Source of the DNA: Bolinopsis microptera
Taxonomy: Eukaryota > Ctenophora > Tentaculata > Lobata > Bolinopsidae
DNA length: 64,000 bases
NCBI RefSeq assembly: GCF_026151205.1
Contig: NC_087080.1
Span: forward strand, 12,969,337-13,033,336
Direction of reading: 5' to 3'
Position numbers and translations under genes: made by a program. Under the pieces are notes generated by a model that was not told the origin of the DNA, ran no database searches, and saw nothing but the letters and a program-made list of their open reading frames with translations. Position 1 is the first letter of the stretch. Every line of letters begins with the position of its first letter. Positions 2,178 through 37,431 of this stretch are shown here, piece after piece.

Positions 2178-2663
2178 GTCTAAAGCTAAAGTCGGCAGTC
2201 GCAGAGTTAACCCCCACAAAGGTTACACAAGGAAAAACACTTTATCTCAACGAGGAACAATTTGCAGCAACACATGCAATCGATAAAGACCTCTCAACTG
2301 TAGCAGCTACTGTCACTGATAACGGAGCAGGCTGGATAAAGTTAGAGTTTGATGGAACCTACTTTATCCACAAGGTCCTTATCTACCACCAATTTTATAC
2401 CGACTGGTACCAAAACCGTCCTGAAAGTCAATGGTGTGCAGAGAATGAAGCTAATTTTAAGATGTGTGTGGATGGTCATAACGAAGTAGATGTGTCAGTG
2501 TACCAAGGAGAGGTAAAACAGAGCTCCTGCGGGACACTCCAACTAACATACGGACTAGAGCAGGCAGACCAGATCTACACACTGATCTGTGACACTGACG
2601 GGGACACTGTAAAGCTCAGCAAGAGTATAGGGAACATAAATGTAGCTGAAGTTGTTGTAACAG
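2178..2663 (+). CDS. F-exon 1: galactose-binding (F5/8C/fucolectin-like) cassette exon
   Basis: Inferred internal exon of a multidomain extracellular protein, 486 bp (162 codons). The proposed acceptor is TACTTCAG before GTCTAAAG and the donor is AACAG before GTGAATTG. Both junctions are phase 1, so the exon is symmetric. The protein reads like a galactose-binding beta-sandwich: an A-I-D-K-D-L-S motif, a G-W-I-K-L-E-F strand, a V-L-I-Y strand, paired cysteines (W-C-A-E, K-M-C-V-D-G, S-S-C-G, L-I-C-D) and a closing A-E-V-V-V-T-G strand, as in fucolectin/F5/8C domains. The frame is also open slightly upstream (V-N-V-Q-Y-F-N-C), so an acceptor at the TAG before position 2144 is an alternative, but that would give unequal phases. 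The domain family is assigned by pattern only; no profile search was possible. Confidence 0.75.
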
Positions 2664-3150
2664 GTGAATTGTATTAATTATTAAAGAGAAACGAATTTGA
2701 CCAAAACCCATAATCATGGGTAGAGTGGACCGCTGCCAGTGTCTCTCTTTCCCAACCAAAAGGAAATGATATTAATTTGATTGACCGTCTGCAAAATATG
2801 CAAAATGATACGAGAATGAAATCGGTCGCTCGATTTTCTCATTCATTCAGGGTTTACGAATTATAATAGGTTTCGATTAATTAAATCAATCACATGCTGT
2901 AAAAATCTCTTTGGGTTGCGTTCGGGTCGACACCTAGTATTTCGGGATAAAGATGGAAGTTAGTGAATTAGCTGACGTTTGTTGAGTGAGAGTCATTTCA
3001 TAAAACCGAATGCAATAAACGCAATCATATATAAAAATACGTTTGTCCAACATAAAAGTATTCATAATAAATATAAGTAATATAAGTACTAAATTCTCCG
3101 AATTTGTATCAAATAGGTAAATGTGCAGTATTTTAATTGTGATACTTCAG

Positions 3151-3636
3151 GTCTAAAGCTAAAGTCGGCAGTCGCAGAGTTGACCCCCACAAAGGTTACA
3201 CAAGGAAAAACACTTTATCTCAACGAGGAACAATTTGCAGCAACACATGCAATCGATAAAGACCTCTCAACTGTAGCAGCTACTGTCACTGATAACGGAG
3301 CAGGCTGGATAAAGTTAGAGTTTGATGGAACCTACTTTATCCACAAGGTCCTTATCTACCACCAATTTTATACCGAGTGGTACCAAAACCGTCCTGAAAG
3401 TCAATGGTGTGCAGAGAATGAAGCTAATTTTAAGATGTGTGTGGATGGTCATAACGAAGTAGATGTGTCAGTGTACCAAGGAGAGGTAAAACAGAGCTCC
3501 TGCGGGACACTCCAACTAACATACGGACTAGAGCAGGCAGACCAGATCTACACACTGATCTGTGACACTGACGGGGACACTGTAAAGCTCAGCAAGAGTA
3601 TAGGGAACATAAATGTAGCTGAAGTTGTTGTAACAG
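3151..3636 (+). CDS. F-exon 2: galactose-binding cassette exon
   Basis: Second copy, 973 bp downstream of the first with the same proposed splice sites. The protein differs from copy 1 only in the segment before W-Y-Q-N-R (E instead of D). The surrounding intron is also nearly identical to that of copy 1. The frame is intact. Confidence 0.75.
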
Positions 3637-4151
3637 GTGAATTGTATTAATTATTAAAGAGAAACGAATTTGACCAAAACCCATAATCATGTGTAGAGTG
3701 GACCGCTGGCCGCTGCCAGTGTCTCTCTTTCCCAACCAAAAGGAAATGATATTAATTTGATTGACCGTCTGCAAAATATTCAAAATGATACGAGAATGAA
3801 ATCAGTCGCTCGATTTTCTCTTTCATTCACGGCTTACGAATTGTAATAAGTTTCGATTAATTAAATCAATCACATGCTGTAAAAATCTCTTTGGGTTGCG
3901 TTCGGGTCGACACCTAGTATTTCGGGATAAGGCCAAGGGTGGTAGTTAGTGAATTAGCTGACGTTTATTGAGTGAGAGTCATTTCATAAAACCGAATGCA
4001 ATAAACGCAATCATATATAAAAATACGGTTGAGTTTGACCAATATAAAAGTATTCATAATAAAAATAAGTAATATAACTATAAGTACTAAATTCTCCGAA
4101 TTTGTATCAAATTATAGGTAAATGTGCAGTATTTTAATTGTGATACTTCAG

Positions 4152-4637
4152 GTCTGAAGCTGAAGTCGGCAGTCGCAGAGTTAACCCCCACAAAGGTTAC
4201 ACAAGGAAAAACACTTTATCTCAACGAGGAACAATTTGCAGCAACACACGCAATCGATAAAGACCTCTCAACTGTAGCAGCTACTGTCACTGATAACGGA
4301 GCAGGCTGGATAAAGTTAGAGTTTGATGGAACCTACTTTATCCACAAGGTCCTTATCTACCACCAATTTTATACCGAGTGGTACCAAAACCGTCCTGAAA
4401 GTCAATGGTGTGCAGAGAATGAAGCTAATTTTAAGATGTGTGTGGATGGTCATAACGAAGTAGATGTGTCAGTGTACCAAGGAGAGGTAAAACAGAGCTC
4501 CTGCGGGACACTCCAACTAACATACGGACTAGAGCAGGCAGACCAGATCTACACACTGATCTGCGACACTGACGGGGACACTGTAAAGCTTAGCAAGAGT
4601 ATAGGGAACATAAATGTAGCTGAAGTTGTTTTAACAG
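4152..4637 (+). CDS. F-exon 3: galactose-binding cassette exon, intron split by a transposon
   Basis: Third copy with an intact 486-bp frame. It has E before W-Y-Q-N-R and a V-to-L change in the last strand (V-V-L-T-G). Ten bases after its donor site the intron is interrupted by the TIR-bounded insertion starting at 4648. Confidence 0.75.
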
Positions 4638-5082
4638 GTGAATTGTACAGGGTGGGCCAAAAGTCAGTGTGCAAACGTTGGCCTTAATAGCTCAGTCACT
4701 GAGTGCCCAATTGAAATACTTCCTTCTGTTATGACTTAATACCACCACTGGTTCGAGGAATTTGTCAACTCGAAAAATATTCGCGTTCATTTTTTTCAAA
4801 TGGAGGTTCATTTTCACATTTATTTGATAGTTTGGATAGTCGGATCAAGCTAAATGTTATTGAATTGTGTTAGGCCATTCGAATTACGTTTGTCCTGAAA
4901 GAATTAGAACTGTAGCTTCTCAGATGACCGAGATATGAAGCATAACGAGTTTATTCATTACGTGTGATCAGGTGATTGGTTTACCTAATCACGTGATAAG
5001 GTGACCCCGTTAACTACCCCGTTAAACATTATGGGAATTTCAAATAACGGAGTAGTTCGCTGTTTATTAGTCTCATGATTGA

Positions 5083-7253
5083 AATACTGATATCTGGATA
5101 TTATCCGGTTGGAAGAGACAAGGACAAGTGAAACAAGGAAGTTAGGAGTAAGGGCAAATTTTCGGCGTCAACGCCATCTTCAGGCTAAAATTGTTATAAA
5201 TGTTAGTATATAATAAATGCTTCTATACTAGTTAAAATGCTAAATTAATATTACACACACTGAATACAGGTTACATCAAATGGTATTGTACATTACATTG
5301 AAAATAGTGATGTACACACGTTTTACACTCTGTCCAAGTACATAATATCTACTGAACAGCAGAGTCGTGTGCTATTTGTTTAAATTTGTCTTTGAATATG
5401 TTGTAAAAGAAATCCCTTAAGCTTCTCGCACTCTTCTTTGTTATTGATACTAGGTTTAAATAAATTAATGTAGTAAGCTTCTGTCACTTTACGTTTAATG
5501 GTGCTATATAAGTTAATTTCTAAAATATCGAAGGAAATATCTGGTTCTATGTTACCGTGAAACTCTGAATAATGAGCAGCCAACGCATTATCAGGATAGG
5601 TTAAAGGCCTGTTGACTGCTCTTCGATGCTCTGAAAATCTATCGTGTGCTGTTCTACTCGTTTCCCCTATATATAGCTCTTGACATAATTTACACGTAAC
5701 TTTGTATATGACACATTTTGGTTTGCAGTCGTGATTTGTTGTGATGAGTGGACATATGATACAGTTTGGTATGGTGCAGTGTGGTTTGTCGTGTGGTCGT
5801 GATGAACATAAGATCTTGAGAGTTTCTTACCTGGTGTGAATATGAATTTGACCGCTAAGTTGTGTGAGAGGGCAAATTGAGTGACTTCTTTGGAAAATGG
5901 CTCGTTGATGAATGGTAGAGTGCATGTTACGTGGTCGGTATCTTGTATGTTTGATGATGAAGGGTTATGACGTGTTGTAGGTGAGAGAGGGTGAAGTCGT
6001 CCTGTTTTGTTTATACGTCGTGGGTCTTGGTAACCGTTGTTGACCAACAAGTTGTCTACTATCTTCATGGACTCTTCTTTATACTCTGGTGTTGATGAGC
6101 AAAAAGCAGCCGTTTTGTAGAAGTTCTTGATGGTTGCTACTTTAGTTCCCTCATTGTGGTGGCTGTTGGCGTGCAGTGTGATATTCTTTTTCTGCTTCTT
6201 TTTGTAGAATTTGTGGTGTAGTGTTCCCTGTTCGTCGATCTTTATCTGGGTGTCGAGGAATGGGCTGAAATCCTGACGGCTTTCCGGATAGTCAATTTCC
6301 CATTTGAGCAACTGGTCTGGGTCCTCGTTTGAGATGGACTCCACTATCCTCAGAGCTTCTTCTTTGGAGCTGGCTAGACTCCCGGCATCATCCACGTATC
6401 TCCGGTAGAATGAGACGTGTAAATCAGTGTAAATCGATCTTCTCTCGAACATATATACTCGTACTATCGCTCCTATTGGTGATGGTTGGCACCCCATGAA
6501 GAGACCAATTTTCTGGAGGTAGAGTCTTGAGTGATATGTAAAGTATGAGTTGGTGAAGACGAATTCAAGGATCTTGTGGATGTGCGTGAGTGTTAGACCC
6601 CAGGTGTCGAGGTCTTCCCAATGTTCTTCGGTGAGTGTAATGAGGTCTTGAATGCAGCCACTGATGTTGATGTTTGTGTACAGTGCTGTGACGTCAGCTG
6701 TGAAGAATGAGAGACCTGAGAGTTGTTGATGTGACATGTTTTGAAGCTCTTCTAGGTGAGTGTGTATATTGCTCAGGTGAGATGGAACATGATTAAGCAG
6801 AGGAGATAGAATAGATTTAACAATCCAAGCAAGCTACACTACTCAGAAGGGGAATTTATACAAGACACAATTGGACGTATTTTACAATTAGAAATAATAT
6901 CTACATCTGAAACTAAGACATTACAATCAAATTTATGAGTTTTCTGTATTAAATAAATAGTCGGTAGTTGGGTATTATGTGATTTAAATAAGTCTACTGT
7001 TTTGCTGTCATAATTACACATCCTACTTATCTCTGTCCATAACACATTACTCTCAGTCTCTAGTCTCTCAGTAACCCTGTTGATGAGGCGGCTGTAGGAG
7101 ACTTCTGAGGGGTTTGCTATTGGTTGGATCCGATTTTGTCGCGTGGTGGTAGGTGCAACGTAGGTGTACGCTTCTTGCGAGGTCATGTCTGACAGATGTT
7201 TCTGCGTAATCTGCTGTTGTACTCCACTGCTCATAATCACAAACTCACCCCCC
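5083..7253 (-). pseudogene. Penelope-like element A, 5'-truncated inverted copy
   Basis: Minus-strand retroelement, and the left arm of a long inverted repeat with 7519-10077. It encodes a reverse transcriptase with F-M-G-C-Q-P-S-P and the Y-V-D-D catalytic motif (frame about 6737-5667). Downstream is a GIY-YIG endonuclease segment (about 5700-5380: Y-K-V-T-C, L-Y-I-G-E-T-S-R, E-H-R-R). The N-terminal part (7240-6839) ends in a stop created by a small insertion relative to the right copy. A 2-bp difference before the endonuclease shifts frame. It is defective, and its own 5' end is missing at 7253. Confidence 0.85.
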
Positions 7254-10077
7254 GTTTTTCAGATGAGATCCCAGATGATACATGCCCGACCAGCTTCGCA
7301 TTTATTAAGTCGAAAAACGTGCCATTTCAACGACCGTTTGCTGGTGCTCCACCCACCACCAACCTCGCCATGGAACATCACCTCCGCCAACTGTGTTACA
7401 TCATTAACACCAGATTAGAACACAGTAAAGTACCCTCTAACCTAACAGCAAAACAACGGGAGGGACTCAAATCCTTGATTGCAAGAAAAGAAGAACTCCA
7501 CTTCTCGAGAAGCGACAAGGGGGGTGAGTTTGTGATTATGAGCAGTGGAGTACAACAGCAGATTACGCAGAAACATCTGTCAGACATGACCTCGCAAGAA
7601 GCGTACACCTACGTTGCACCTACCACCACGCGACAAAATCGGATCCAACCAATAGCAAACCCCTCAGAAGTCTCCTACAGCCGCCTCATCAACAGGGTTA
7701 CTGAGAGACTAGAGACTGAGAGTAATGTGTTATGGACAGAGATAAGTAGGATGTGTAATTATGACAGCAAAACAGTAGACTTATTTAAATCACATAATAC
7801 CCAACTACCGACTATTTATTTAATACAGAAAACTCATAAATTTGATTGTAATGTCTTAGTTTCAGATGTAAATATTATTTCTAATTGTAAAATACGTCCA
7901 ATTGTGTCTTGTATAAATTCCCCTTCTGAGAAGCTTGCTTGGATTGTTAAATCTATTCTATCTCCTCTGCTTAATCATGTTCCATCTCACCTGAGCAATA
8001 TACACACTCACCTAGAAGAGCTTCAAAACATGTCACATCAACAACTCTCAGGTCTCTCATTCTTCACAGCTGACGTCACAGCACTGTACACAAACATCTA
8101 CATCAGTGGCTGCATTCAAGACCTCATTACACTCACCGAAGAACATTGGGAAGACCTCGACACCTGGGGTCTAACACTCACGCACATCCACAAGATCCTT
8201 GAATTCGTCTTCACCAACTCATACTTTACATATCACTCAAGACTCTACCTCCAGAAAATTGGTCTCTTCATGGGGTGCCAACCATCACCAATAGGAGCGA
8301 TAGTACGAGTATATATGTTCGAGAGAAGATCGATTTACACTGATTTACACGTCTCATTCTACCGGAGATACGTGGATGATGCCGGGAGTCTAGCCAGCTC
8401 CAAAGAAGAAGCTCTGAGGATAGTGGAGTCCATCTCAAACGAGGACCCAGACCAGTTGCTCAAATGGGAAATTGACTATCCGGAAAGCCGTCAGGATTTC
8501 ACCCCATTCCTCGACACCCAGATAAAGATCGACGAACAGGGAACACTACACCACAAATTCTACAGAAAGAAGCAGAAAAAGAATATCACACTGCACGCCA
8601 ACAGCCACCACAATGAGGGAACTAAAGTAGCAACCATCAAGAACTTCTACAAAACGGCTGCTTTTTGCTCATCAACACCAGAGTATAAAGAAGAGTCCAT
8701 GAAGATAGTAGACAACTTGTTGGTCAACAACGGTTACCAAGACCCACGACGTATAAACAAAACAGGACGACTTCACCCTCTCTCACCTACAACACGTCAT
8801 AACCCTTCATCATCAAACATACAAGATACCGACCACGTAACATGCACTCTACCATTCATCAACGAGCCATTTTCCAAAGAAGTCACTCAATTTGCCCTCT
8901 CACACAACTTAGCGGTCAAATTCATATTCACACCAGGTAAGAAACTCTCAGAGATCTTATGTTCATCACGACCACACGACAAACCACACTGCACCATTTT
9001 TATCTCAACACTTATTTTACTTCGGACATTCCAACAGCCACATTGTTACACAAGTGTGTAACCAGCCAATTACAGGAAGCCGAAGGATTCAATTATACAT
9101 TAGGCCAGTGACGGTTAAGGTAGTGTGTACCATACTTTCTTCGCCCGAGACTTTGCTGCAATGGGCAGCTCCTCATTTAACCCTCACACCCGATTTCTCG
9201 AGTATTTGGCTGAGTGGACCGGGGGGCTGCATAGACCACTCAGGATCCTTAGCTGAGCGTCGACGACGCTCACCCCACGGCTAGTGACAGAGTCGGGAAT
9301 CGAACCTGGTACCTCAAGCAATACCAGGCGGATTAACCAACTGAGCCACTAAGCCGTTTTTGAGCCACTAAGCCGTTGAGAATATACATACCAAACTGTA
9401 TCATATGTCCACTCATCACAACAAATCACGACTGCAAACCAAAATGTGTCATATACAAAGTTACGTGTAAATTATGTCAAGAGCTATATATAGGGGAAAC
9501 GAGTAGAACAGCACACGATAGATTTTCAGAGCATCGAAGAGCAGTCAACAGGCCTTTAACCTGTCCTGATAATGCGTTGGCTGCTCATTATTCAGAGTTT
9601 CACGATAACATAGAACCAGATATTTCCTTCGATATTTTAGAAATTAACTTATATAGCACCATTAAACGTAAAGTGACAGAAGCTTACTACATTAATTTAT
9701 TTAAACCTAGTATCAATAACAAAGAAGAGTGCGAGAAGCTTAAGGGATTTCTTTTACAACATATTCAAAGACAAATTTAAACAAATAGCACACGACTCTG
9801 CTGTTCAGTAGATATTATGTACTTGGACAGAGTGTAAAACGTGTGTACATCACTATTTTCAATGTAATGTACAATACCATTTGATGTAACCTGTATTCAG
9901 TGTGTGTAATATTAATTTAGCATTTTAACTAGTATAGAAGCATTTATTATATACTAACATTTATAACAATTTTAGCCTGAAGATGGCGTTGACGCCGAAA
10001 ATTTGCCCTTACTCCTAACTTCCTTGTTTCACTTGTCCTTGTCTCTTCCAACCGGATAATATCCAGATATCAGTATT
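7254..10077 (+). pseudogene. Penelope-like element A, longer plus-strand copy
   Basis: The frame open from about 7254 reads D-K-G-G-E-F-V-I-M (a conserved N-terminal Penelope motif) and continues through a full reverse transcriptase with Y-V-D-D (about 8365-8380) to about 8997. There a tRNA-derived SINE interrupts it. The reading resumes after 9389 with P-N-C-I-I-C-P, a cysteine pair typical of the linker, then a GIY-YIG endonuclease (L-Y-I-G-E-T, conserved R and E-H) ending at the stop at 9780. The 3' untranslated part runs to 10077. The N-terminal open frame continues artificially upstream into the opposing copy. The element is inactive as it stands because of the SINE. Confidence 0.88.
8998..9389 (-). 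mobile_element. tRNA-derived SINE inserted in Penelope copy
   Basis: A 392-bp insertion is defined by comparison with the opposite arm, which is continuous here. Read on the minus strand it begins with a tRNA-like head: A-box TGGCTCAGTTGG (9348-9337) and B-box GGTTCGATTCC (9306-9296), the internal Pol III promoter. A short duplication (TGAGCCACTAAGCCGTT) sits at the head. The body runs toward 8998 and ends in an A-rich tail (GAGATAAAA). A CAT trinucleotide flanks both ends and may be a short target duplication. Confidence 0.8.
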
Positions 10078-10119
10078 ATGGGAATTGTTAAGGGTGCCCA
10101 ATTAAAGTGTCGTGTCACG

Positions 10120-10426: not shown

Positions 10427-11068
10427 CTAGTCGTTGGAGTGGCCTGCATCACACACATCGCGTTGGCGGCGTAACATATGTCTCCACTGTACTCGGTTGG
10501 TAGCCAAAGCTTCTGTTGTGTCGTTGTCGATGTTTTCAACACCTGTAAACTTAGCAGCATCTTCGAGTACGCAGGACTTCCAGTTCTTACGGGGTCTGCC
10601 CCTTGACCTCTTTCCATAATTTGGCTTCCAGTTCAACAGAAACCTCGGTAGTCTAGAGTCTGGCATTCTAACTACATGTCCATACCAACGTAGCCTGGCA
10701 GCACTGATGAAAGTCTCAACTGACTTGATGCCAGCCCTCCTAAGAACTTCGTCGTTGGTCACATGAAAGAACCATTTAATCCTAAGGATCCTTCTCAAGG
10801 AGCTTTGATGGAAAACCTCGAAGCGTTTCATCTGCTTTTTGGTGGTGTTCCAGACTTCAGCTCCATACAACAAGATGGTGAGGACAGCAGCCCTATAGAT
10901 CCTGATCTTGGTTGGAGTCTTTATAGTTCTGCTATTCCAAATGTTCCAGAGCTGATGAAAGGCGCCATTAGCCTTCTGAATACAGACATCCAGGTCTCTG
11001 TTGATTGTCCCATCCCCACTCTGCAAAGCAACAGCTCTCAAATATAAAACACGGCGGAGGTATAAGAC
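10427..11068 (-). pseudogene. 5'-truncated LINE (RTE-like) C-terminal fragment
   Basis: A minus-strand frame of about 200 residues carries hallmarks of the region after a non-LTR reverse transcriptase: L-L-Y-G-A-E-V-W, L-R-R-I-L-R-I, R-L-R-W-Y-G-H-V-V-R-M and R-G-R-P-R-K-N-W. No catalytic domain is present. The coding part runs directly into the right terminal inverted repeat of the composite element, so it was truncated at or recombined with that end. Confidence 0.8.
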
Positions 11069-11102
11069 CCAACGTTTGCACACTGACTTTTGGCCCACCC
11101 TG

Positions 11103-11690
11103 ATTAAAGATAAACAAATTTGACCAAAACCCATAACCATGGGTAGAGGGGACCGCTGCCAGTGTCCCTCAATCCCAACCAAAAGGAAATGATATTAATT
11201 TGATTGACCGTCTGCAAAATATGCAAAATGATACGAGAATGAAATCGGGCGCTCGATTTACTCATTCATTCACGGCTTACGAATTGTAATAAGTTTTGAT
11301 TAATTAAATCAATCATATGCTGTAAAAATCTCTTTGGGTCGCGTTCGGGTCGACACCTAGTATTTCGGGATAAGGCCAAGGGTGGTAGTTAGTGAATTAG
11401 CTGACGTTTATTGAGTGAGAGTCATTTCATAAAACCGAATGCAATAAACGCAATAACCAGCTGAAGTTGTTGTAACAGGTGAATTGTATTAAATATTAAA
11501 GAGAAACAAATTTGACCAAAACCCATAATCATGGGTAGAGTGGACCGCTGCCAGTGTCTCTCTTTCCCAACCAAAAGGAAATGATATTAATTTGATTGAC
11601 CGTCTGCAAAATATGCAAAATTATACGAGACTGAAATCGGTCGCTCGCTTTTCCCATACTAATTTTATAATAATTTTATAATAATCCATA
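11103..11690 (+). pseudogene. F-cassette unit with exon deleted
   Basis: Intron sequence of the array reappears here, but an internal deletion joins the upstream intron (AATAAACGCAATAACC) directly to the last 19 bp of the F-exon (AGCTGAAGTTGTTGTAACAG, exon end 11478). Two tandem copies of the downstream intron segment (TTGACCAAAACCCATAATCATGGG) flank the deletion. It cannot encode the domain. Confidence 0.8.
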
Positions 11691-11737
11691 ATTCTATATT
11701 CTTTAAATATAATTATAAACATCAACTAATCCCCCAG

Positions 11738-11857
11738 GAGCGGAATGTGAGGAAGGGAAGGCACGTTGTGCGGATGGAGTGCAATGTATTGAGGACAATT
11801 CTTTTTGTGATGGTTCAGCAGATTGTGAAGATGGTTCAGATGAAGATAATTGCCCAG
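11738..11857 (+). CDS. LDLa-exon 1: LDL-receptor class A cassette exon
   Basis: A 120-bp exon, acceptor CCCCCAG and donor GCCCAG before GTTGAG, phase 1 at both ends. It encodes a complete LDL-receptor class A repeat of about 40 residues with six cysteines and the calcium-binding acidic end C-D-G-S-A-D-C-E-D-G-S-D-E-D-N-C. Such modules are extracellular, calcium-dependent ligand-binding units. Stops in all frames just beyond the splice sites support the exon borders. Confidence 0.85.
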
Positions 11858-12619: not shown

Positions 12620-12796
12620 TTGATGGAGGATTGAGTGCGTTTGGAGAATGGTCAGAGTGCTCAACTTCTTGTGGAGAAGGCCAAGGACAACAGACCAGGG
12701 AAAGAAGCTGTAATAACCCAGCCCCAGCTAATGGTGGTGCTGATTGTGAGGGAAGTTTGACAGAAGCGCAAAATTGCAACTCCGGTCCTTGTCCAG
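12620..12796 (+). CDS. TSP1-exon 1: thrombospondin type 1 cassette exon
   Basis: A 177-bp exon (59 codons), acceptor CAACTTAG and donor GTCCAG before GTTCG, phase 1 at both ends. It encodes one thrombospondin type 1 repeat: F-G-E-W-S-E-C-S-T-S-C-G (the W-x-x-C-S-x-x-C-G signature), then T-R-E-R-S-C, then four more cysteines ending G-P-C-P. TSP1 repeats are extracellular and often C-mannosylated and O-fucosylated at this signature. This copy contains the longer G-E-G-Q-G-Q-Q loop. Confidence 0.88.
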
Positions 12797-12947: not shown

Positions 12948-13118
12948 TTGATGGAGGATTGAGTGCGTTTGGAGAATGGTCAGAGTGCTCAACTTCTTGT
13001 GGAGAAGGACAACAGACCAGGGAAAGAAGCTGTAATAACCCAGCCCCAGATAATGGTGGTGCTGATTGTGAGGGAAGTTTGACAGAATCGCAAAATTGCA
13101 ACTCCGATCCTTGTCTAG
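12948..13118 (+). CDS. TSP1-exon 2: thrombospondin type 1 cassette exon
   Basis: 171 bp, phase 1-1, 328 bp after the first copy. It lacks the two-residue G-Q insertion (G-E-G-Q-Q) and has D in P-A-P-D-N. It also has a substituted end (D-P-C-L instead of G-P-C-P), changing the base before the donor (CTAG|GT). The frame is intact. Confidence 0.86.
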
Positions 13119-14747: not shown

Positions 14748-15237
14748 GTCTAAAGCTAAAGTCGGCAGTCGCAGAGTTAACCCCCACAAAGGTTACACAT
14801 GGAAAAACACTTTATCTCAACGAGGAACAATTTGCAGCAACACATGCAATCGATAAAGACCTCTCAACTGTAGCAGCTACTGTCACTGATAACGGAGCAG
14901 GCTGGATAAAGTTAGAGTTTGATGGAACTTACTTTATCCACAAGGTCCTTATCTACCACCAATTTTATACCAACTGGTACCAAAACCGTCCTGAAAGTCA
15001 ATGGTGTGCAGAGAATGAAGCTAATTTTAAGATGTGTGTGGATGGTCATAACGAAGTAGATGTGTCAGTGTACCAAGGAGAGGTAAAACAGAGCTCCTGC
15101 GGGACACTCCAACTAACATACGGACTAGAGCAGGCAGACCAGATCTACACAGTGATCTGTGACACTGACGGGGACACTGTTTATAAAGCTCAGCAAGAGT
15201 ATAGGGAACATAAATGTAGCTGAAGTTGTTGTAACAG
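14748..15237 (+). pseudogene. F-exon 4, frameshifted
   Basis: 490 bp between the usual splice sites instead of 486. An extra TTAT near 15180-15183 (ACTGTTTATAAAGC versus ACTGTAAAGC) shifts the frame before the last strand. It also carries a Q-to-H change (V-T-H-G-K) and N before W-Y-Q-N-R. If included in an mRNA it would break the reading frame. Confidence 0.8.
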
Positions 15238-15732: not shown

Positions 15733-16220
15733 GTCTGAAGCTGAAGTCGGCAGTCGCAGAGTTAACCCCCACAAAGGTTACACAAGGAAAAACACTTTAT
15801 CTCAACGAGGAACAATTTGCAGCAACACACGCAATCGATAAAGACCTCTCAACTGTAGCAGCTACTGTCACTGATAACGGAGCAGGCTGGATAAAGATAG
15901 AGTTTGCTGGAACCTACTTTATCCACAAGGTCCTTATCTACCACCAATTTTATACCGAGTGGTACCAAAACCGTCCTGAAAGTCAATGGTGTGCAGAGAA
16001 TGAAGCTAATTTTAAGATGTGTGTGGATGGTCATAACGAAGTAGATGTGTCAGTGTACCAAGGAGAGGTAAAACAGAGCTCCTGCGGGACACTCCAACTA
16101 ACGTATACGGACTAGAGCAGGCAGACCAGATCTACACACTGATCTGTGACACTGACGGGGACACTGTAAAGCTCAGCAAGAGTATCGGGAACATAAATGT
16201 AGCTGAAGTTGTTGTAACAG
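15733..16220 (+). pseudogene. F-exon 5, frameshifted
   Basis: 488 bp. Two extra bases near 16102 (AACGTATACGG versus AACATACGG) lead to an early TAG at about 16113. Other changes are W-I-K-I-E-F-A-G in the core strand. Adjacent copies 4 and 5 are thus both broken, by different lesions. Confidence 0.8.
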
Positions 16221-16709: not shown

Positions 16710-17195
16710 GTCTAAAGCTAAAGTCAGCAGTCGCAGAGTTGACCCCCACAAAGGTTACACAAGGAAAAACACTTTATCTCAACGAGGAACAATTTGCAGC
16801 AACACATGCAATCGATAAAGACCTCTCAACTGTAGCAGCTACTGTCACTGATAACGGAGCAGGCTGGATAAAGTTAGAGTTTGATGGAACCTACTTTATC
16901 CACAATGTCCTTATCTACCACCAATTTTATACCGACTGGTACCAAAACCGTCCTGAAAGTCAATGGTGTGCAGAGAATGATGCTAATTTTAAGATGTGTG
17001 TGGATGGTCATAACGAAGTTGATGTGTCAGTGTACCAAGGAGAGGTAAAACAGAGCTCCTGCGGGACACTCCAACTAACATACGGACTAGAGCAGGCAGA
17101 CCAGATCTACACAATGATCTGTGAATCTGACGGGGACACTGTAAAGCTCAGCAAGAGTATAGGGAACATAAATATAGCTGAAGTTGTTGTAACAG
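16710..17195 (+). CDS. F-exon 6: galactose-binding cassette exon, most diverged intact copy
   Basis: 486 bp, intact. It differs at several sites (F-I-H-N-V-L, E-N-D-A-N-F, T-M-I-C-E-S-D-G-D, N-I-N-I-A-E-V), making it the most divergent intact F-exon. An LDLa-exon follows 255 bp later. Confidence 0.74.
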
Positions 17196-17450: not shown

Positions 17451-17570
17451 GAGCGGAATGTGAGGAAGGGAAGGCACGTTGTGCGGATGGAGTGCAATGT
17501 ATTGAGGACAATTCTTTTTGTGATGGTTCAGCAGATTGTGAAGATGGTTCAGATGAAGATTATTGCCCAG
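17451..17570 (+). CDS. LDLa-exon 2: LDL-receptor class A cassette exon
   Basis: 120 bp, phase 1-1, six cysteines retained. One notable change: the residue between the last acidic position and the final cysteine is Y instead of N (D-E-D-Y-C). Flanking introns match copies 1 and 3 closely. Confidence 0.85.
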
Positions 17571-20397: not shown

Positions 20398-21626
20398 GGC
20401 ACATATTAGGTGCGATGGGTGCGGGATCGCACAATTTACCGTTTCCCGCACACTTCCGCATAATTTATTGTTTTCCGCACATTTTCGCACATTTTGTAAT
20501 TATCTGCATATTTCCGCATAATCTAGCATTTTCCGCGTAATTTCGCATAATTTTGAAATTTTTGCGTTAAGATTTTCGAGTGTAAAAACCAAAATATGTT
20601 AAATGTCGGGCCCTTTTATAGGACCGTGACTCAGGCCCTTTCGGGACCCTGACCCAGGCCCTTTCGGGACCCTGACCCAGGCCCTTTCGGGACCGTGACC
20701 CAGGCCGTTTTGGAACTCATACCTAGGCCACGTGACCCAGTTACCACGTGACTCAGGCCCTTTCGGGACCCTGACCGAGGCCCTTTCGGGACCCTGACTC
20801 AGGCCCTTTCGGGACCCTGACCGAGGCCCTTTCGGGACCATGACCCAGGCCCTTTTGGAACTCATGCTTAGGCCACGTAACCGAGGCCCTTTCGGGACCG
20901 TGACCCAGGCCCTTTCGGTACCGTTACCCAGGCCCTTTCGGGACCCTGACCCAGGCCCTTTCGGGACCATGACCCAGGCCCTTTTGGAACTCATGCTTAG
21001 GCCACGTGACCGAGGCCCTTTCGGGACCGTGACCCAGGCCCTTTCGGGACCGTTACCCAGGCCCTTTCGGGACCGTGACCCAGGCCCTTTCGGGACCGTG
21101 ACCCAGGCCGTTATGGAACCCTCGTCGTTACCGTACTTCGATTATAGTGTATCAGTTATCATTCGTAACTTCTGCCTCTGGTGATAATAGAGTAGGTAGC
21201 GTTGGCTTTATAGTGGGCTTAATGGATCTTGGATCAAATGGTTCACAAGTACTGACGATCAATGCCAACAAGCGTGTCACATATTTGCGATCACGCATGG
21301 GATCTGATCGACTCTATCAAGAGGCGTCTTCAAATAACTGTCTCCTGATCTCTACCAGATCAAGTCACTGTTCTCAGATAACTGAATCTCAATAAAGGTT
21401 CAATCATGGTCTTAGTAAAGAACTACACCCTCAGTAACACATAAACAGACCTATTTTTGATAAGAGCGGCGGTTATACGTTTAGAATTTCCAAAGTCCTT
21501 GAGAAAATGCAAAAGAAAACCGCACAATTCCCGCACAAATTACGAAAAAATCACCGCACATTTTACCTTTATAGTCGGGTGCGGTACCGCATAATTTCGA
21601 TTTTTTTACCGCACCTAATATGTGCC
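20398..21626. mobile_element. Non-autonomous TIR element carrying a minisatellite
   Basis: Ends are perfect 17-bp inverted repeats, GGCACATATTAGGTGCG (20398-20414) and its complement (21610-21626). Subterminal regions are full of CCGCACA/TTCCGCATAATT motifs in opposite orientation. The flanks CCGCAGCCCATG and CCGCAGCCACATGG look like a target duplication, though a TCTG stretch intervenes on the right. No transposase. It interrupts the N-terminus of Penelope element B. Confidence 0.75.
20607..21118. repeat. 23-bp minisatellite (CAGGCCCTTTCGGGACCCTGACC)n
   Basis: About 20 tandem 23-bp units containing the near-palindrome GGCCCTTTCGGGACC, with a higher-order variant holding a TTTTGGAACTCATGCTTAGGCCACGTGACC insert. 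Both strands stay open only because the unit has no stops; no protein is inferred. Confidence 0.93.
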
Positions 21627-22246: not shown

Positions 22247-22732
22247 GTCTAAAGCTAAAGTCGGCAGTCGCAGAGTTAACCCCCACAAAGGTTACACAAG
22301 GAAAAACACTTTATCTCAACGAGGAACAATTTGCAGCAACACATGCAATCGATAAAGACCTCTCAACTGTAGCAGCTACTGTCACTGATAACGGAGCAGG
22401 CTGGATAAAGTTAGAGTTTGATGGAACCTACTTTATCCACAAGGTCCTTATCTACCACCAATTTTATACCGACTGGTACCAAAACCGTCCTGAAAGTCAA
22501 TGGTGTGCAGAGAATGAAGCTAATTTTAAGATGTGTGTGGATGGTCATAACGATGTAGATGTGTCAGTGTACCAAGGAGAGGTAAAACAGAGCTCCTGCG
22601 GGACACTCCAACTAACATACGGACTAGAGCAGGCAGACCAGATCTACACACTGATCTGTGACACTGACGGGGACACTGTAAAGCTCAGCAAGAGTATAGG
22701 GAACATAAATGTAGCTGAAGTTGTTGTAACAG
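22247..22732 (+). CDS. F-exon 7: galactose-binding cassette exon
   Basis: 486 bp, intact; carries the H-N-D-V-D-V variant. It is the first of five closely spaced intact copies. Its intron variant (CCAAAATTCATAATC and GACCACTGCC) recurs only at copy 9. Confidence 0.75.
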
Positions 22733-23219: not shown

Positions 23220-23705
23220 GTCTAAAGCTAAAGTCGGCAGTCGCAGAGTTGACCCCCACAAAGGTTACACAAGGAAAAACACTTTATCTCAACGAGGAAC
23301 AATTTGCAGCAACACATGCAATCGATAAAGACCTCTCAACTGTAGCAGCTACTGTCACTGATAACGGAGCAGGCTGGATAAAGTTAGAGTTTGATGGAAC
23401 CTACTTTATCCACAAGGTCCTTATCTACCACCAATTTTATACCGACTGGTACCAAAACCGTCCTGAAAGTCAATGGTGTGCAGAGAATGAAGCTAATTTT
23501 AAGATGTGTGTGGATGGTCATAACGATGTAGATGTGTCAGTGTACCAAGGAGAGGTAAAACAGAGCTCCTGCGGGACACTCCAACTAACATACGGACTAG
23601 AGCAGGCAGACCAGATCTACACACTGATCTGTGACACTGACGGGGACACTGTAAAGCTCAGCAAGAGTATAGGGAACATAAATGTAGCTGAAGTTGTTGT
23701 AACAG
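23220..23705 (+). CDS. F-exon 8: galactose-binding cassette exon
   Basis: 486 bp, intact, with the same predicted protein as copies 7 and 9. The upstream intron has the TTTGTTTTTTGTATC variant shared with copies 10 and 11. Confidence 0.75.
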
Positions 23706-24184: not shown

Positions 24185-24670
24185 GTCTAAAGCTAAAGTC
24201 GGCAGTCGCAGAGTTAACCCCCACAAAGGTTACACAAGGAAAAACACTTTATCTCAACGAGGAACAATTTGCAGCAACACATGCAATCGATAAAGACCTC
24301 TCAACTGTAGCAGCTACTGTCACTGATAACGGAGCAGGCTGGATAAAGTTAGAGTTTGATGGAACCTACTTTATCCACAAGGTCCTTATCTACCACCAAT
24401 TTTATACCGACTGGTACCAAAACCGTCCTGAAAGTCAATGGTGTGCAGAGAATGAAGCTAATTTTAAGATGTGTGTGGATGGTCATAACGATGTAGATGT
24501 GTCAGTGTACCAAGGAGAGGTAAAACAGAGCTCCTGCGGGACACTCCAACTAACATACGGACTAGAGCAGGCAGACCAGATCTACACACTGATCTGTGAC
24601 ACTGACGGGGACACTGTAAAGCTCAGCAAGAGTATAGGGAACATAAATGTAGCTGAAGTTGTTGTAACAG
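24185..24670 (+). CDS. F-exon 9: galactose-binding cassette exon
   Basis: 486 bp, intact, 1938 bp from copy 7 with the same intron variants, so it belongs to the second half of a two-exon duplication. Confidence 0.75.
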
Positions 24671-25157: not shown

Positions 25158-25643
25158 GTCTAAAGCTAAAGTCGGCAGTCGCAGAGTTGACCCCCACAAA
25201 GGTTACACAAGGAAAAACACTTTATCTCAACGAGGAACAATTTGCAGCAACACATGCAATCGATAAAGACCTCTCAACTGTAGCAGCTACTGTCACTGAT
25301 AACGGAGCAGGCTGGATAAAGTTAGAGTTTGATGGAACCTACTTTATCCACAAGGTCCTTATCTACCACCAATTTTATACCGACTGGTACCAAAACCGTC
25401 CTGAAAGTCAATGGTGTGCAGAGAATGATGCTAATTTTAAGATGTGTGTGGATGGTCATAACGAAGTAGATGTGTCAGTGTACCAAGGAGAGGTAAAACA
25501 GAGCTCCTGCGGGACACTCCAACTAACATACGGACTAGAGCAGGCAGACCAGATCTACACACTGATCTGTGACACTGACGGGGACACTGTAAAGCTCAGC
25601 AAGAGTATAGGGAACATAAATGTAGCTGAAGTTGTTGTAACAG
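25158..25643 (+). CDS. F-exon 10: galactose-binding cassette exon
   Basis: 486 bp, intact, 1938 bp from copy 8. The exon differs from copy 8 (E-N-D-A-N-F and H-N-E-V-D-V) although the flanks match, which suggests gene conversion or exchange within the exon. Confidence 0.75.
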
Positions 25644-26130: not shown

Positions 26131-26616
26131 GTCTAAAGCTAAAGTCGGCAGTCGCAGAGTTAACCCCCACAAAGGTTACACAAGGAAAAACACTTTATCT
26201 CAACGAGGAACAATTTGCAGCAACACATGCAATCGATAAAGACCTCTCAACTGTAGCAGCTACTGTCACTGATAACGGAGCAGGCTGGATAAAGTTAGAG
26301 TTTGATGGAACCTACTTTATCCACAAGGTCCTTATCTACCACCAATTTTATACCAACTGGTACCAAAACCGTCCTGAAAGTCAATGGTGTGCAGAGAATG
26401 ATGCTAATTTTAAGATGTGTGTGGATGGTCATAACGAAGTAGATGTGTCAGTGTACCAAGGAGAGGTAAAACAGAGCTCTTGCGGGACACTCCAACTAAC
26501 ATACGGACTAGAGCAGGCAGACCAGATCTACACACTGATCTGTGACACTGACGGGGACACTGTAAAGCTCAGCAAGAGTATAGGGAACATAAATGTAGCT
26601 GAAGTTGTTGTAACAG
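26131..26616 (+). CDS. F-exon 11: galactose-binding cassette exon
   Basis: 486 bp, intact; N before W-Y-Q-N-R and E-N-D-A-N-F. The intron after its donor differs slightly (GAATTGTATCATTATAAGAG). It precedes LDLa-exon 3. Confidence 0.75.
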
Positions 26617-26872: not shown

Positions 26873-26992
26873 GAGCAGAATGTGAGGAAGGGAAGGCACG
26901 TTGTGCGGATGGAGTGCAATGTATTGAGGACAATTCTTTTTGTGATGGTTCAGCAGATTGTGAAGATGGTTCAGATGAAGATAATTGCCCAG
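26873..26992 (+). CDS. LDLa-exon 3: LDL-receptor class A cassette exon
   Basis: 120 bp, phase 1-1, with the same peptide as copy 1 (acidic end D-E-D-N-C). The acceptor is preceded by CTAATCCCCCAG as in the other copies. Confidence 0.85.
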
Positions 26993-27386: not shown

Positions 27387-28060
27387 ACCTTGACCTAATT
27401 CTAACTGTCCACTTTAAATCTTGATATACCTTATCAGACCATATTTGACCGGACATTAAATGAACGGACATAATTATGAACGGACATTAAAATGAACGTT
27501 CGAAGGCATTCAAAACTTAACGGGTGATACTCGTAAAACATTTGTTTCAAATAGTACCGGAGGGTCGACGAGTCCAACTCAGCGTGCGTCCTGGTACGTA
27601 GGTTATAAACCTACAACATACAATTCAAAACCATCAAAAATCCAATATTTTTCATCGTTTTTTTTTTGCATTTTTAAAACTTTAGCAGATAATTGGTAAA
27701 TTATTTTTCGTACAATAACTATAAGCAAAAAAGGCAGTCGTTAAGCAGTCAAAATGTCAAAATGTCAAAATGTCTTTAGATCCTGATCAGTGTTGTTGTC
27801 ACCGCGGTTGATAATGAAAGTTGTGTAAAAACAACAAATACGAAATTTGATGATCATATCACAGGTGATCATCTTCCTCAAATGGGGTATCGTGCAATAA
27901 ATATTCCATGCTTTAAGCATCATACCAGTAATACATGCTTTTTAAAAACAATTTTGTATTCGACCACCTCGGTCCTGCATTTCAGTGTAAACTTTACAAG
28001 ATCTGGAGGTAAATAATAACTCCGAAGATGTGAACGGTTGATTACGGACCAATTGATATA

Positions 28061-30905: not shown

Positions 30906-30928
30906 TATAACACAGTTTTTCAACTTAG

Positions 30929-31099
30929 TTGATGGAGGATTGAGTGCGTTTGGAGAATGGTCAGAGTGCTCAACTTCTTGTGGAGAAGGACAACAGACCA
31001 GGGAAAGAAGCTGTAACAACCCAGCCCCAGATAATGGTGGTGCTGATTGTGAGGGAAGTTTGACAGAATCGCAAAATTGCAACTCCGGTCCTTGTCCAG
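30929..31099 (+). CDS. TSP1-exon 3: thrombospondin type 1 cassette exon
   Basis: 171 bp, phase 1-1, short-loop form (G-E-G-Q-Q, P-A-P-D-N). The acceptor region (CAGTTTTTCAACTTAG) lies only 23 bp after the end of the 2.85-kb TIR element. Confidence 0.86.
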
Positions 31100-31249
31100 G
31101 TTCGTTAAGTAACCTATTATATTCGATAATTCAGTACGAAGAAAAAACATAACAACTAAAAATTAAATTGACTTTTCTCAAAGTTCAGAAAGTATTAGCG
31201 CAAAATAAATTCTGTTATATTTGATATATAACACAGCTTTTCAACTTAG

Positions 31250-31441
31250 TTGATGGAGGATTAGTTGATGGAGGATTGAGTGCGTTTGGAGAATGGTCAG
31301 AGTGCTCAACTTCTTGTGGAGAAGGCCAAGGACAACAGACCAGGGAAAGAAGCTGTAATAACCCAGCCCCAGCTAATGGTGGTGCTGATTGTGAGGGAAG
31401 TTTGACAGAAGCGCAAAATTGCAACTCCGGTCCTTGTCCAG
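31250..31441 (+). CDS. TSP1-exon 4: thrombospondin type 1 cassette exon with duplicated acceptor
   Basis: 192 bp from the first acceptor. A 15-bp in-frame duplication (TTGATGGAGGATTAG) adds D-G-G-L-V and creates a second acceptor at 31265, which would give a 177-bp exon. Long-loop form (G-E-G-Q-G-Q-Q). Confidence 0.86.
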
Positions 31442-31592
31442 GTTCGTTAAGTAACCTATTATATTCGATAATTCAGTACGAAGAAAAAAACATAACAACT
31501 AAAAATTAAATTGACTTTTCCCAAAGTTCAGAAAGTATTAGCGCAAAATAAAATCTGTTATATTTGATATATAACACAGCTTTTCAACTTAG

Positions 31593-31784
31593 TTGATGGA
31601 GGATTAGTTGATGGAGGATTGAGTGCGTTTGGAGAATGGTCAGAGTGCTCAACTTCTTGTGGAGAAGGCCAAGGACAACAGACCAGGGAAAGAAGCTGTA
31701 ATAACCCAGCCCCAGCTAATGGTGGTGCTGATTGTGAGGGAAGTTTGACAGAAGCGCAAAATTGCAACTCCGGTCCTTGTCCAG
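31593..31784 (+). CDS. TSP1-exon 5: thrombospondin type 1 cassette exon with duplicated acceptor
   Basis: 192 bp, long-loop form with the doubled acceptor. The first donor-side codon after the exon differs (GTTGG instead of GTTCG). The downstream intron contains the LINE insertion at 31856. Confidence 0.86.
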
Positions 31785-31855
31785 GTTGGTTAAGTAACCT
31801 ATTAGTATTATAATTATATTCGATAATTCAGTACCAAGTACGAAGAAAAAACATA

Positions 31856-32229
31856 GTAGTAGTAGTAAATCTTTCAAAGTACGAAATATCTCTTTAAAAG
31901 AGCATCCTAGGCACCTTATAGATATCAAAACGCATAAAAAAGAAAACAAAAACATCAACCATCTTCTAACTTCTTCCACTCCTCCCTATCTAAAGCTAAA
32001 AATCTAAGGTCTTCGAAATCAGTCAAATTCTTAAGTCTAATATCAAGATTTCTACTAGTCAAGTCTTTTCTAATAACATCTAATAAGTTTAAACATGGTC
32101 TACCCCGTCTCCCTTCCATAAAAATATCAGAATTTATAGCAAATAACATAGAGGTGTATGCTGGTGAGTCTTCCTGTCCTCTTAAGATATGTCCTAACAT
32201 TCTCCATCGAAACTTAGAGACTCTCACAC
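31856..32229 (-). mobile_element. LINE 3'-end insertion in TSP1 array intron
   Basis: Flanked by a perfect 10-bp duplication AAAAAACATA (31846-31855 and 32230-32239). On the minus strand it encodes a non-LTR retrotransposon tail (F-R-W-R-M-L-G-H-I-L-R, G-R-R-G-R-P) and ends in a short (TAC)n run, a typical LINE 3' tail. It is severely 5'-truncated. Confidence 0.88.
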
Positions 32230-32337
32230 AAAAAACATAACAACTAAAAATTAAATTGACTTTTCCCAAAGTTCAGAAAGTATTAGCGCAAAATAAAATC
32301 TGTTATATTTGATACATAACACAGCTTTTCAACTTAG

Positions 32338-32529
32338 TTGATGGAGGATTAGTTGATGGAGGATTGAGTGCGTTTGGAGAATGGTCAGAGTGCTCAACTT
32401 CTTGTGGAGAAGGCCAAGGACAACAGACCAGGGAAAGAAGCTGTAATAACCCAGCCCCAGCTAATGGTGGTGCTGATTGTGAGGGAAGTTTGACAGAAGC
32501 GCAAAATTGCAACTCCGGTCCTTGTCCAG
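32338..32529 (+). CDS. TSP1-exon 6: thrombospondin type 1 cassette exon with duplicated acceptor
   Basis: 192 bp, phase 1-1, long-loop form. The GTTGG donor context is shared with copy 5, which suggests these two arose from one another before the LINE insertion. Confidence 0.86.
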
Positions 32530-32687
32530 GTTGGTTAAGTAACCTATTATATTCGATAATTCAGTACGAAGAAAAAAACATAACGACTAAAAATTAAATT
32601 GACTTTTCTCAAAGTTCAGAAAGTATTAGCAATTAGCGCAAAATAAAATCTGTTATATTTTATATATAACACAGCTTTTCAACTTAG

Positions 32688-32879
32688 TTGATGGAGGATT
32701 AGTTGATGGAGGATTGAGTGCGTTTGGAGAATGGTCAGAGTGCTCAACTTCTTGTGGAGAAGGCCAAGGACAACAGACCAGGGAAAGAAGCTGTAACAAC
32801 CCAGCCCCAGCTAATGGTGGTGCTGATTGTGAGGGAAGTTTGACAGAAGCGCAAAATTGCAACTCCGGTCCTTGTCCAG
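32688..32879 (+). CDS. TSP1-exon 7: thrombospondin type 1 cassette exon with duplicated acceptor
   Basis: 192 bp. Its downstream intron (GTTCGTTAATTAACC, then TATTTCGATAATTCAGTATGAAG) matches the intron after TSP1-exon 1, linking this pair to the upstream block. Confidence 0.86.
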
Positions 32880-33028
32880 GTTCGTTAATTAACCTATTAT
32901 ATTTCGATAATTCAGTATGAAGAAAAAACATAACAACTAAATATTAAATTGACTTTTTCCAAAGTTCAGAAAGTATTAGCGCAAAATAAAATCTGTTATA
33001 TTTGATATGACACAGCTTTTCAACTTAG

Positions 33029-33199
33029 TTGATGGAGGATTGAGTGCGTTTGGAGAATGGTCAGAGTGCTCAACTTCTTGTGGAGAAGGACAACAGACCA
33101 GGGAAAGAAGCTGTAACAACCCAGCCCCAGATAATGGTGGTGCTGATTGTGAGGGAAGTTTGACAGAAGCGCAAAATTGCAACTCCGGTCCTTGTCCAG
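33029..33199 (+). CDS. TSP1-exon 8: thrombospondin type 1 cassette exon
   Basis: 171 bp, short-loop form, single acceptor. It occupies the place equivalent to TSP1-exon 2 but keeps the usual G-P-C-P end. Confidence 0.86.
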
Positions 33200-33349
33200 G
33201 TTCGTTAAGTAACCTATTATATTCGATAATTCAGTACGAAGAAAAAACATAACAACTAAAAATTAAATTGACTTTTCTCAAAGTTCAGAAAGTATTAGCG
33301 CAAAATAAAATCTGTTATATTTGATATATAACACAGCTTTTCAACTTAG

Positions 33350-33541
33350 TTGATGGAGGATTAGTTGATGGAGGATTGAGTGCGTTTGGAGAATGGTCAG
33401 AGTGCTCAACTTCTTGTGGAGAAGGCCAAGGACAACAGACCAGGGAAAGAAGCTGTAACAACCCAGCCCCAGCTAATGGTGGTGCTGATTGTGAGGGAAG
33501 TTTGACAGAAGCGCAAAATTGCAACTCCGGTCCTTGTCCAG
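33350..33541 (+). CDS. TSP1-exon 9: thrombospondin type 1 cassette exon with duplicated acceptor
   Basis: 192 bp, long-loop form, doubled acceptor. Confidence 0.86.
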
Positions 33542-33693
33542 GTTCGTTAAGTAACCTATTATATATTCGATAATTCAGTACGAAGAAAAAACATAACAAC
33601 TAAAAATTAAATTGACTTTTTCCAAAGTTCAGAAAGTATTAGCGCAAAATAAAATCTGTTATATTTGATATATGACACAGCTTTTCAACTTAG

Positions 33694-33870
33694 TTGATGG
33701 AGGATTGAGTGCGTTTGGAGAATGGTCAGAGTGCTCAACTTCTTGTGGAGAAGGCCAAGGACAACAGACCAGGGAAAGAAGCTGTAACAACCCAGCCCCA
33801 GCTAATGGTGGTGCTGATTGTGAGGGAAGTTTGACAGAAGCGCAAAATTGCAACTCCGGTCCTTGTCCAG
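33694..33870 (+). CDS. TSP1-exon 10: thrombospondin type 1 cassette exon, last of array
   Basis: 177 bp, long-loop form but with a single acceptor. It is followed by the same AAAACTTCATAATA intron tail as TSP1-exon 2. No further domain exon was recognised downstream on the plus strand. Confidence 0.86.
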
Positions 33871-37430: not shown

Positions 37431-37431
37431 A

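What the first reader, a model, noticed from the sequence alone, without database searches (positions are those of the whole stretch)
2178..33870. Giant plus-strand array of three phase-1 cassette exon types (F-lectin-like, LDL-A, TSP1)
Seen: 24 full-size domain exons (11 F, 3 LDL-A, 10 TSP1) with consistent AG/GT borders. With the chosen sites, each intact module is a multiple of 3 and begins and ends in phase 1. Known: symmetric phase 1-1 modules are the currency of exon shuffling in extracellular proteins. Inference: a large, copy-number-variable adhesion or recognition receptor, or a locus able to make many isoforms by choosing cassettes. This is the strongest candidate here for an undescribed system.
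Basis: partly seen in the sequence, partly recalled or inferred. Interest (0 to 1): 0.85.

Follow-up and report, generated by a model that had tools for sequence, protein, structure and literature searches.

The report
Comb-jelly modular surface-protein exon array
This stretch of what is probably a comb-jelly genome holds a long run of nearly identical, mix-and-match protein-domain exons that most likely build a large secreted or cell-surface adhesion or recognition protein, from a family that keeps gaining and losing domains by recombination.

Summary
The + strand of window 2178-33870 carries 24 domain exons (11 F, 3 LDL-A, 10 TSP1) with AG/GT borders in phase 1; 2 of the 11 F exons are frameshifted. 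A signal-peptide exon ending in phase 1 lies 1.67 kb upstream of the window. Joined to the 22 intact exons it gives 2,185 codons without a stop. A second locus (C1) repeats the order F4-LDL-A-TSP1-TSP1 and ends in a GPI-signal-like exon, again phase 1. The genome is probably a lobate ctenophore, perhaps Bolinopsis microptera. F resembles F5/8C domains only weakly and lacks the fucolectin motif; 62 strong rows occur genome-wide. F exons vary far less than their downstream introns (p=1e-21) and lean towards silent changes, less so in the youngest copies. The cassettes are almost identical, so choosing among them would vary length more than specificity. Best reading: a family of secreted or GPI-anchored modular surface proteins changing by recombination between intronic repeats. 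No transcripts were available, and this locus's 3' end was not found. New variant of a known kind.

The parts
2178..2663 (+). F exon 1 (162 codons, phase 1-1)
3151..3636 (+). F exon 2
4152..4637 (+). F exon 3
11738..11857 (+). LDL-A exon 1 (40 codons, phase 1-1)
12620..12796 (+). TSP1 exon 1
12948..13118 (+). TSP1 exon 2
14748..15237 (+). F exon 4, frameshifted (490 bp)
15733..16220 (+). F exon 5, frameshifted (488 bp)
16710..17195 (+). F exon 6
17451..17570 (+). LDL-A exon 2
22247..22732 (+). F exon 7
23220..23705 (+). F exon 8
24185..24670 (+). F exon 9 (identical to F exon 7)
25158..25643 (+). F exon 10
26131..26616 (+). F exon 11
26873..26992 (+). LDL-A exon 3
30929..31099 (+). TSP1 exon 3
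31265..31441 (+). TSP1 exon 4 (second acceptor 15 bp upstream)
31608..31784 (+). TSP1 exon 5 (doubled acceptor)
32353..32529 (+). TSP1 exon 6 (doubled acceptor)
32703..32879 (+). TSP1 exon 7 (doubled acceptor)
33029..33199 (+). TSP1 exon 8
33365..33541 (+). TSP1 exon 9 (doubled acceptor)
33694..33870 (+). TSP1 exon 10
37429..38321 (+). possible scar: F-intron-like sequence followed by sequence homologous to the 3' flank of the C1 tail exon; no tail exon recognised here. The C1 3' region also holds an F-intron-like piece, inverted, so the history is unclear

Best explanation
The array is the exon set of a large modular extracellular protein gene in what is probably a lobate ctenophore: signal peptide, then blocks of F5/8C-like (F) domains, an LDL-A domain and TSP1 domains, joined by phase-1 introns. 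At the sister locus on C1 the same order ends in a GPI-signal-like exon, so some of the family's products probably sit on the outer membrane as multivalent binders, with F domains as ligand-binding heads and LDL-A/TSP1 as spacer and adhesion modules. Modules are gained and lost by unequal recombination between intronic repeats, and the frame survives because every module is phase 1-1. Shown: module identity of TSP1 and LDL-A, border phases, the signal-peptide exon, the repeated order at C1, the shared tail exon, recent unit duplication, a TSP1 exon absent between repeats at one of three tail loci, low variation of F exons. Inferred: that the exons are spliced into one mRNA here, membrane anchorage, ligand, function. 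Adhesion or recognition is the likeliest role.
For: Modules and phases. Signal-peptide exon with phase-1 donor CAG|GTAAAA at C9:12967663: the only hit of a strict scan on both strands of 94 kb of C9 and 40 kb of C1, with a threshold set after I had seen it; a looser scan of the window's + strand finds no other. Signal-peptide-like exons, phase 1, at looser thresholds, lie upstream of F exons at C11 and at one of four other F places scanned, C8, about 180 bases from the F exon. SP plus 22 intact exons: 2,185 codons, no stop. C1 has F4-LDL-A-TSP1-TSP1 and an in-phase tail exon. That exon recurs at 20 other places over at least 183 of 262 bases; 6 of the 8 of these that I read keep the tail frame; 2 of 3 loci read further upstream have a TSP1 exon before it, and in the third that stretch is missing and one copy of the flanking repeat remains. 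Two-unit block duplicated in the F array. Variable sites 20/486 in exon against 77/263 in downstream intron, p=1e-21; nonsilent to silent per site 0.31, p=0.011. Family dN/dS 0.38 over all pairs of 19 F exons.
Against: No transcript. 2 of 11 F exons are frameshifted; included as they stand, the joined model stops at codon 823. No convincing terminal exon on C9: the tail-like ORF at 38363-38497 has only one phase-1 AG, inside it and without a pyrimidine tract. No signal-peptide exon at C1 with an AG or G donor; a looser scan lists two poor candidates there. Weak GTT donors. Penelope-like elements in the introns. Closer pairs show less constraint: C9 against C1 0.95, against two C8 exons 0.61 and 0.67. 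The 140 bases upstream of F exons vary only slightly more (10/124) than the exons (24/486), so downstream introns alone carry the contrast, and gene conversion could share in it. Near-identical units may be miscounted by the assembly.
Confidence: 0.62

Rival explanations
1. The C9 array is a decaying or rearranging pseudo-locus: exon copies spread from functional family members by segmental duplication and conversion, with no intact gene here.
For: Two frameshifted F exons, no terminal exon and a possible scar at 37429-38321, retroelements in the introns, C9/C1 F ratio near 0.95, F exons without TSP1 or LDL-A in the 10 kb read at C5 and two C8 places, the C5 one with an internal stop.
Against: F exons vary far less than their downstream introns and changes lean to silent; a well-formed signal-peptide exon; 22 of 24 exons stay in frame when joined.
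Confidence: 0.22
2. Three adjacent genes, [F3-L-T2], [F3-L] and [F5-L-T8], made by tandem duplication of an F-L-T gene, rather than one giant gene. This overlaps with the best explanation and changes only the gene count.
For: Repeated order F-L-T, and C1 is a single such unit. One tail-like ORF lies between blocks 2 and 3 (window 18900-19022) with phase-1 AGs, but it is antisense to a retroelement frame and unconvincing.
Against: No further signal-peptide exon on the window's + strand even in a loose scan; no convincing terminal exon between blocks.
Confidence: 0.3
3. Isoform generator: cassettes are chosen by alternative splicing (Dscam-like), so one locus makes many receptors.
For: Modules are symmetric, so any subset keeps the frame; 5 of 10 TSP1 exons have a doubled acceptor that would add 5 codons in frame; frameshifted F exons could be skipped harmlessly.
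Against: Cassettes are nearly identical (0-16 of 486 differences among 9), so choice yields length, not specificity.
Confidence: 0.08

Closest known systems
Class 1-1 (phase 1-1) shuffled extracellular modules of Metazoa (PMC8001218; passages seen)
   Same: Symmetric phase-1 exons of extracellular modules, signal-peptide exon ending in phase 1
   Different: Here change looks ongoing: F units 92-99% alike in self-comparison, module number differing between loci, a TSP1 exon absent between flanking repeats
F5/8C (discoidin) and F-type lectin domains
   Same: Weak Pfam matches: 14 of 19 members to F5_F8_type_C_2, 10 of 19 to F5_F8_type_C; best PDB match, E 0.008, is a chain of an alpha-N-acetylglucosaminidase family protein, followed by alpha-amylases from 0.04 that are probably chance; four cysteines conserved in 19 of 19
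   Different: Window member below the Pfam cut-off; fucolectin motif absent
SpTransformer (Sp185/333) family of sea urchin (PMC3091723, PMC5491942; search listing with start of abstract only)
   Same: Clustered, repeat-rich gene family; diversification linked to repeats in one title
   Different: Two-exon small genes there; multi-exon domain cassettes here; no immune induction shown here
Mega-thrombospondins of ctenophores (PMC6526912; passages seen)
   Same: Large ctenophore extracellular proteins named for thrombospondin
   Different: Defined there by the TSP C-terminal region with leucine-rich repeats and a cadherin domain; I did not search the array for these, and the modules found are others
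SRCR proteins of Mnemiopsis leidyi (PMC11797021; passages seen)
   Same: A figure legend names TSP1 and LDL domains among their partners
   Different: No SRCR domain was found or searched for here

Membership tests
Class 1-1 modular extracellular proteins | Modules bounded by phase-1 introns on both sides | tested here: met
   Sequence borders, 22 of 24 intact; splicing itself not observed
Class 1-1 modular extracellular proteins | Signal peptide exon joined in phase 1 | tested here: met
   C9:12967663, by a hydrophobicity and donor scan, no dedicated predictor
TSP1 domain (PF00090) | Score over Pfam cut-off | tested here: met
   50.4 bits against 21.6, one copy scanned
LDL receptor class A (PF00057) | Score over Pfam cut-off | tested here: met
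   36.9 bits against 24.1, one copy scanned
F5/8C domain | Score over Pfam cut-off | tested here: not met
   Window member 13.3 bits against 27.8; best E among 19 members 5.8e-4, bits not shown for it
F5/8C domain | Galactose-binding beta-sandwich fold | tested here: inconclusive
   Single-sequence model, mean pLDDT 39.7, unusable
F-type lectin (fucolectin) | Fucose motif H-X24-R-X-D-X4-R/K (recalled) | tested here: not met
   0 of 19 members
GPI-anchored proteins | C-terminal hydrophobic tail after small residues, ending at the stop | tested here: inconclusive
   By inspection for C1 and 6 of 8 copies read; no predictor run; not found on C9
Dscam-like isoform locus | Divergent alternative cassettes | tested here: not met
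   Cassettes nearly identical; exclusive use not testable without cDNA
Diversified immune receptor family (SpTransformer-like) | Induction by microbes, variation among individuals | not testable with these tools
   No expression or population data

The most novel reading that the evidence does not exclude
A ctenophore recognition system: dozens of loci share interchangeable phase-1 cassettes (signal peptide, variable F or other head, LDL-A, TSP1, GPI-like tail), and recombination between intronic repeats keeps reassembling them, giving a fast-evolving, individually variable repertoire of multivalent surface receptors.
Probability: 0.2. Interest if true: 0.78.

Novelty: new variant of a known kind. 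Interest (0 to 1): 0.5.

Why it matters
[quoted passage not shown] A family caught in the act of class 1-1 exon shuffling, with exons, flanking repeats and a missing module all visible, would let one test how modular extracellular proteins are built, and would supply candidate adhesion or recognition receptors.

Tried and rejected
COX1 and STING family searches to name the species: no match (the STING family rang in no control either, so that answer shows no absence); the species was instead placed by glutamate receptor fragments. Rfam on the window: no match. Single-sequence structure prediction of F: unusable, no fold search made. ORF at 38363-38497 rejected as the C9 terminal exon for want of a good phase-1 acceptor. 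One search was mis-aimed, about 600 bases downstream of the signal-peptide exon, so it says nothing about that exon. One search's 10.8% for downstream introns came from a multiple alignment; pairwise alignment gave 5.4%, and I rely. In one search the downstream comparison left out F exons 4152 and 26131, whose downstream sequence differs. Fucolectin identity rejected. Dscam-like reading judged weak. Literature: searches, in an open-access library only and reading the first rows listed, showed no paper on this array or on an F/LDL-A/TSP1/GPI family of ctenophores; that does not show it is undescribed.
Full report
Observation. A tblastn of the three module proteins against the window and 30 kb upstream gave 11 F, 3 LDL-A and 10 TSP1 exons, all on the + strand, between 2174 and 33872, and none in the 30 kb upstream. 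Borders: F TTCAG|GT...ACAG|GT (486 bp), LDL-A CCCAG|GA...CCAG|GT (120 bp), TSP1 TTAG|TT...AG|GT (171 or 177 bp), phase 1 at both ends. Two of the 11 F exons, 14748 and 15733, are 490 and 488 bp and out of frame. The block order is F3-L-T2, F3-L, F5-L-T8. The count of 24 is right; 22 are intact.

Identity of modules. One TSP1 and one LDL-A copy were scanned and pass Pfam cut-offs. The window F protein had no Pfam match at E 1 when sent as the whole ORF. Among 19 family members scanned one by one, 14 matched F5_F8_type_C_2 (best E 5.8e-4) and 10 matched F5_F8_type_C (best 1.5e-3); 5 matched Tectonin (best 0.014) and six other families matched one or two members each; the window member scored 13.3 bits against a cut-off of 27.8. 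Of four more distant relatives, three showed the same weak F5/8C matches and one did not. The profile's best PDB match is part of an alpha-N-acetylglucosaminidase family protein, E 0.008, with alpha-amylases from 0.04. I read F as F5/8C-like; membership is not established. The fucolectin motif, as I recall it, is absent in 19 of 19.

Organism. The genome is 264.65 Mb in 232 contigs; the F matches lay on C1 to C13, the listed TSP1 matches on these and C81. Two glutamate receptor fragments match ML032222a at E 1.8e-60 and 8.3e-60, with the next distinct protein at 2.3e-31 and 6e-31 and mammalian-type receptors at 2.4e-17. That ML numbers are Mnemiopsis leidyi genes is consistent with PMC6278862. 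The alignments show roughly three quarters identity (my estimate). A third fragment matched kainate and delta receptors best among the 60 shown. The B. microptera assembly has 13 chromosome-scale scaffolds holding 97.23% of bases (PMC10232365, passages). I infer a lobate ctenophore, most likely B. microptera; this is not proven.

The gene. A strict scan for signal-peptide exons with a phase-1 AG|GTA donor found one hit on both strands of 94 kb of C9 and 40 kb of C1: MKKSLTCLVVILAFSLKMCHGSPG at C9:12967663, 1,674 bases before window base 1 and on the array's strand. I had seen this exon before setting the threshold; the earlier, looser scan listed six candidates in C9, C1 and a third stretch, with poorer donors in the other five. 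A loose scan of the window's + strand found none. At looser thresholds similar exons lie upstream of F exons at C11 and at one of four further places, C8; none with an AG or G donor at C1. Joining the C9 exon to the 22 intact exons gives 6,556 bases, 2,185 codons, no stop. With the two broken F exons included as they stand the first stop is at codon 823. Intact exons read past their donor meet a stop within about 25 codons, so intron retention would truncate the protein.

Second locus and tail. C1, minus strand, has F4-LDL-A-TSP1-TSP1; the F4 to LDL-A stretch including introns is 95.9% identical to C9 over 4.4 kb. It ends in an exon with acceptor CCTTCAG|AG, phase 1, coding an acidic stretch, small residues and a hydrophobic tail to the stop, which looks like a GPI signal (by inspection). 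The exon and its flanks match 20 other places over at least 183 of 262 bases at 77-90%, and four places briefly, two of these in the window. I read 8 of the 20: 6 keep the tail frame and 2 are shifted. Of 3 loci read further upstream, 2 have a TSP1 exon before the tail and a different head exon, whose g2 copy has no Pfam match at E 10; in the third the TSP1 stretch is absent and one copy of the repeat that flanks it in the others remains. This is what deletion between direct repeats leaves. On C9 the corresponding place (37429-38321) is F-intron-like sequence followed by sequence homologous to the 3' flank of the tail exon, but C1 too has an F-intron-like piece, inverted, beyond its tail exon, so the history is unclear. 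No terminal exon was recognised on C9; the two tail-like ORFs (18900-19022 and 38363-38497) are unconvincing. Anchorage at C9 is unproven; a secreted product is possible.

Dynamics and constraint. F units repeat every 973 bp or so and are 92-99% alike in self-comparison. Exons 22247 and 24185 are identical with 1 of 340 differences downstream; 23220 and 25158 differ by 2 in the exon and 4 downstream, so a two-unit block was duplicated recently. In nine copies, 20 of 486 exon sites vary against 77 of 263 in the downstream intron, Fisher p=1e-21; two copies with different downstream sequence were left out. Over all 11, exons hold 24 of 486 variable sites and 2 indels, and the 140 bases upstream 10 of 124 and 9 indels. 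In the 9 intact exons 10 nonsilent and 9 silent changes give a per-site ratio of 0.31, p=0.011. Over all pairs of 19 family F exons dN/dS is 0.38. Against this, C9 and C1 F exons give 0.95, and C9 against two C8 exons 0.61 and 0.67, each one pair. Conversion could also lower exon divergence, so the silent bias is the better evidence, and it is modest.

Extent of the family. The F search listed 108 matches from 150 scored of 175 candidates; 62 rows have E of 2e-40 or better (my count of the table), on 10 contigs, some of them pieces of one exon. C11 has 5 tandem F exons with 624-bp spacing and no TSP1 or LDL-A match in about 4.5 kb on each side. C1:23.83 Mb holds 5 full TSP1 exons of the window's type and a partial one, with no F match in the 30 kb read.

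Mechanism. Best reading: a signal-peptide-led, phase-1 modular surface protein whose F domains bind a ligand, multivalently because they are tandem, with TSP1 and LDL-A as spacer and adhesion modules, GPI-anchored in at least part of the family. Symmetric phase lets unequal exchange add or drop modules without breaking the frame, and lets broken exons be skipped. Adhesion or recognition is inference from the module types.

What it is probably not. The near identity of cassettes argues against Dscam-like choice of specificity. It does not have the fucose motif of fucolectins. Kinship to mega-thrombospondins (PMC6526912, passages) was not tested. Papers: passages of PMC11797021, PMC6278862, PMC6526912, PMC8001218, PMC10232365 and PMC13231562 were seen; PMC3091723 and PMC5491942 in a search listing only. 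PMC6278862 names TSP1 among domains shared by colloblast, tentacle and toxin-database sets, without significant enrichment: a lead only.

Noticed in passing
window 5083-10077: Penelope-like retroelement copies in inverted arrangement between F exon 3 and LDL-A 1: RVT_1 (E 7.7e-5, below its cut-off) and GIY-YIG (just over cut-off) matches, arms over 99% identical.
   Followed up: partly
window 18395-20101 (-): Open frames that by eye look like a second Penelope-type reverse transcriptase between LDL-A 2 and F exon 7; no Pfam match.
   Followed up: partly
window 10427-11194 (-): 255-codon frame with a DUF6451 match over cut-off, by eye like the end of a LINE reverse transcriptase.
   Followed up: no
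window 49220-51191 (+): Two open frames (49220-49936, 50001-51191) with glycosyltransferase family 2 and ricin-type lectin matches: probably a polypeptide N-acetylgalactosaminyltransferase gene, named from the domain pair.
   Followed up: no
window 63202-63879 (+): Sec20-like SNARE open frame, E 1.4e-21.
   Followed up: no
L053 with L062; L063 with L056: A different head exon (about 180 codons; g2 copy without Pfam match) before TSP1 and GPI-like tail exons: possibly another undescribed extracellular domain.
   Followed up: partly
window 764-1139, 20621-21119, 34852-35308, 36442-36607: Simple and tandem repeats: (AG)188, GC-rich units of about 23 to 129 bp, 26-bp units and a 6-bp TGACCC array.
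   Followed up: no
G000:C1:10929860-10939595: Very long open frames (up to 1,790 codons) of TSP1 repeats, many 171 bp apart, without introns between them.
   Followed up: no
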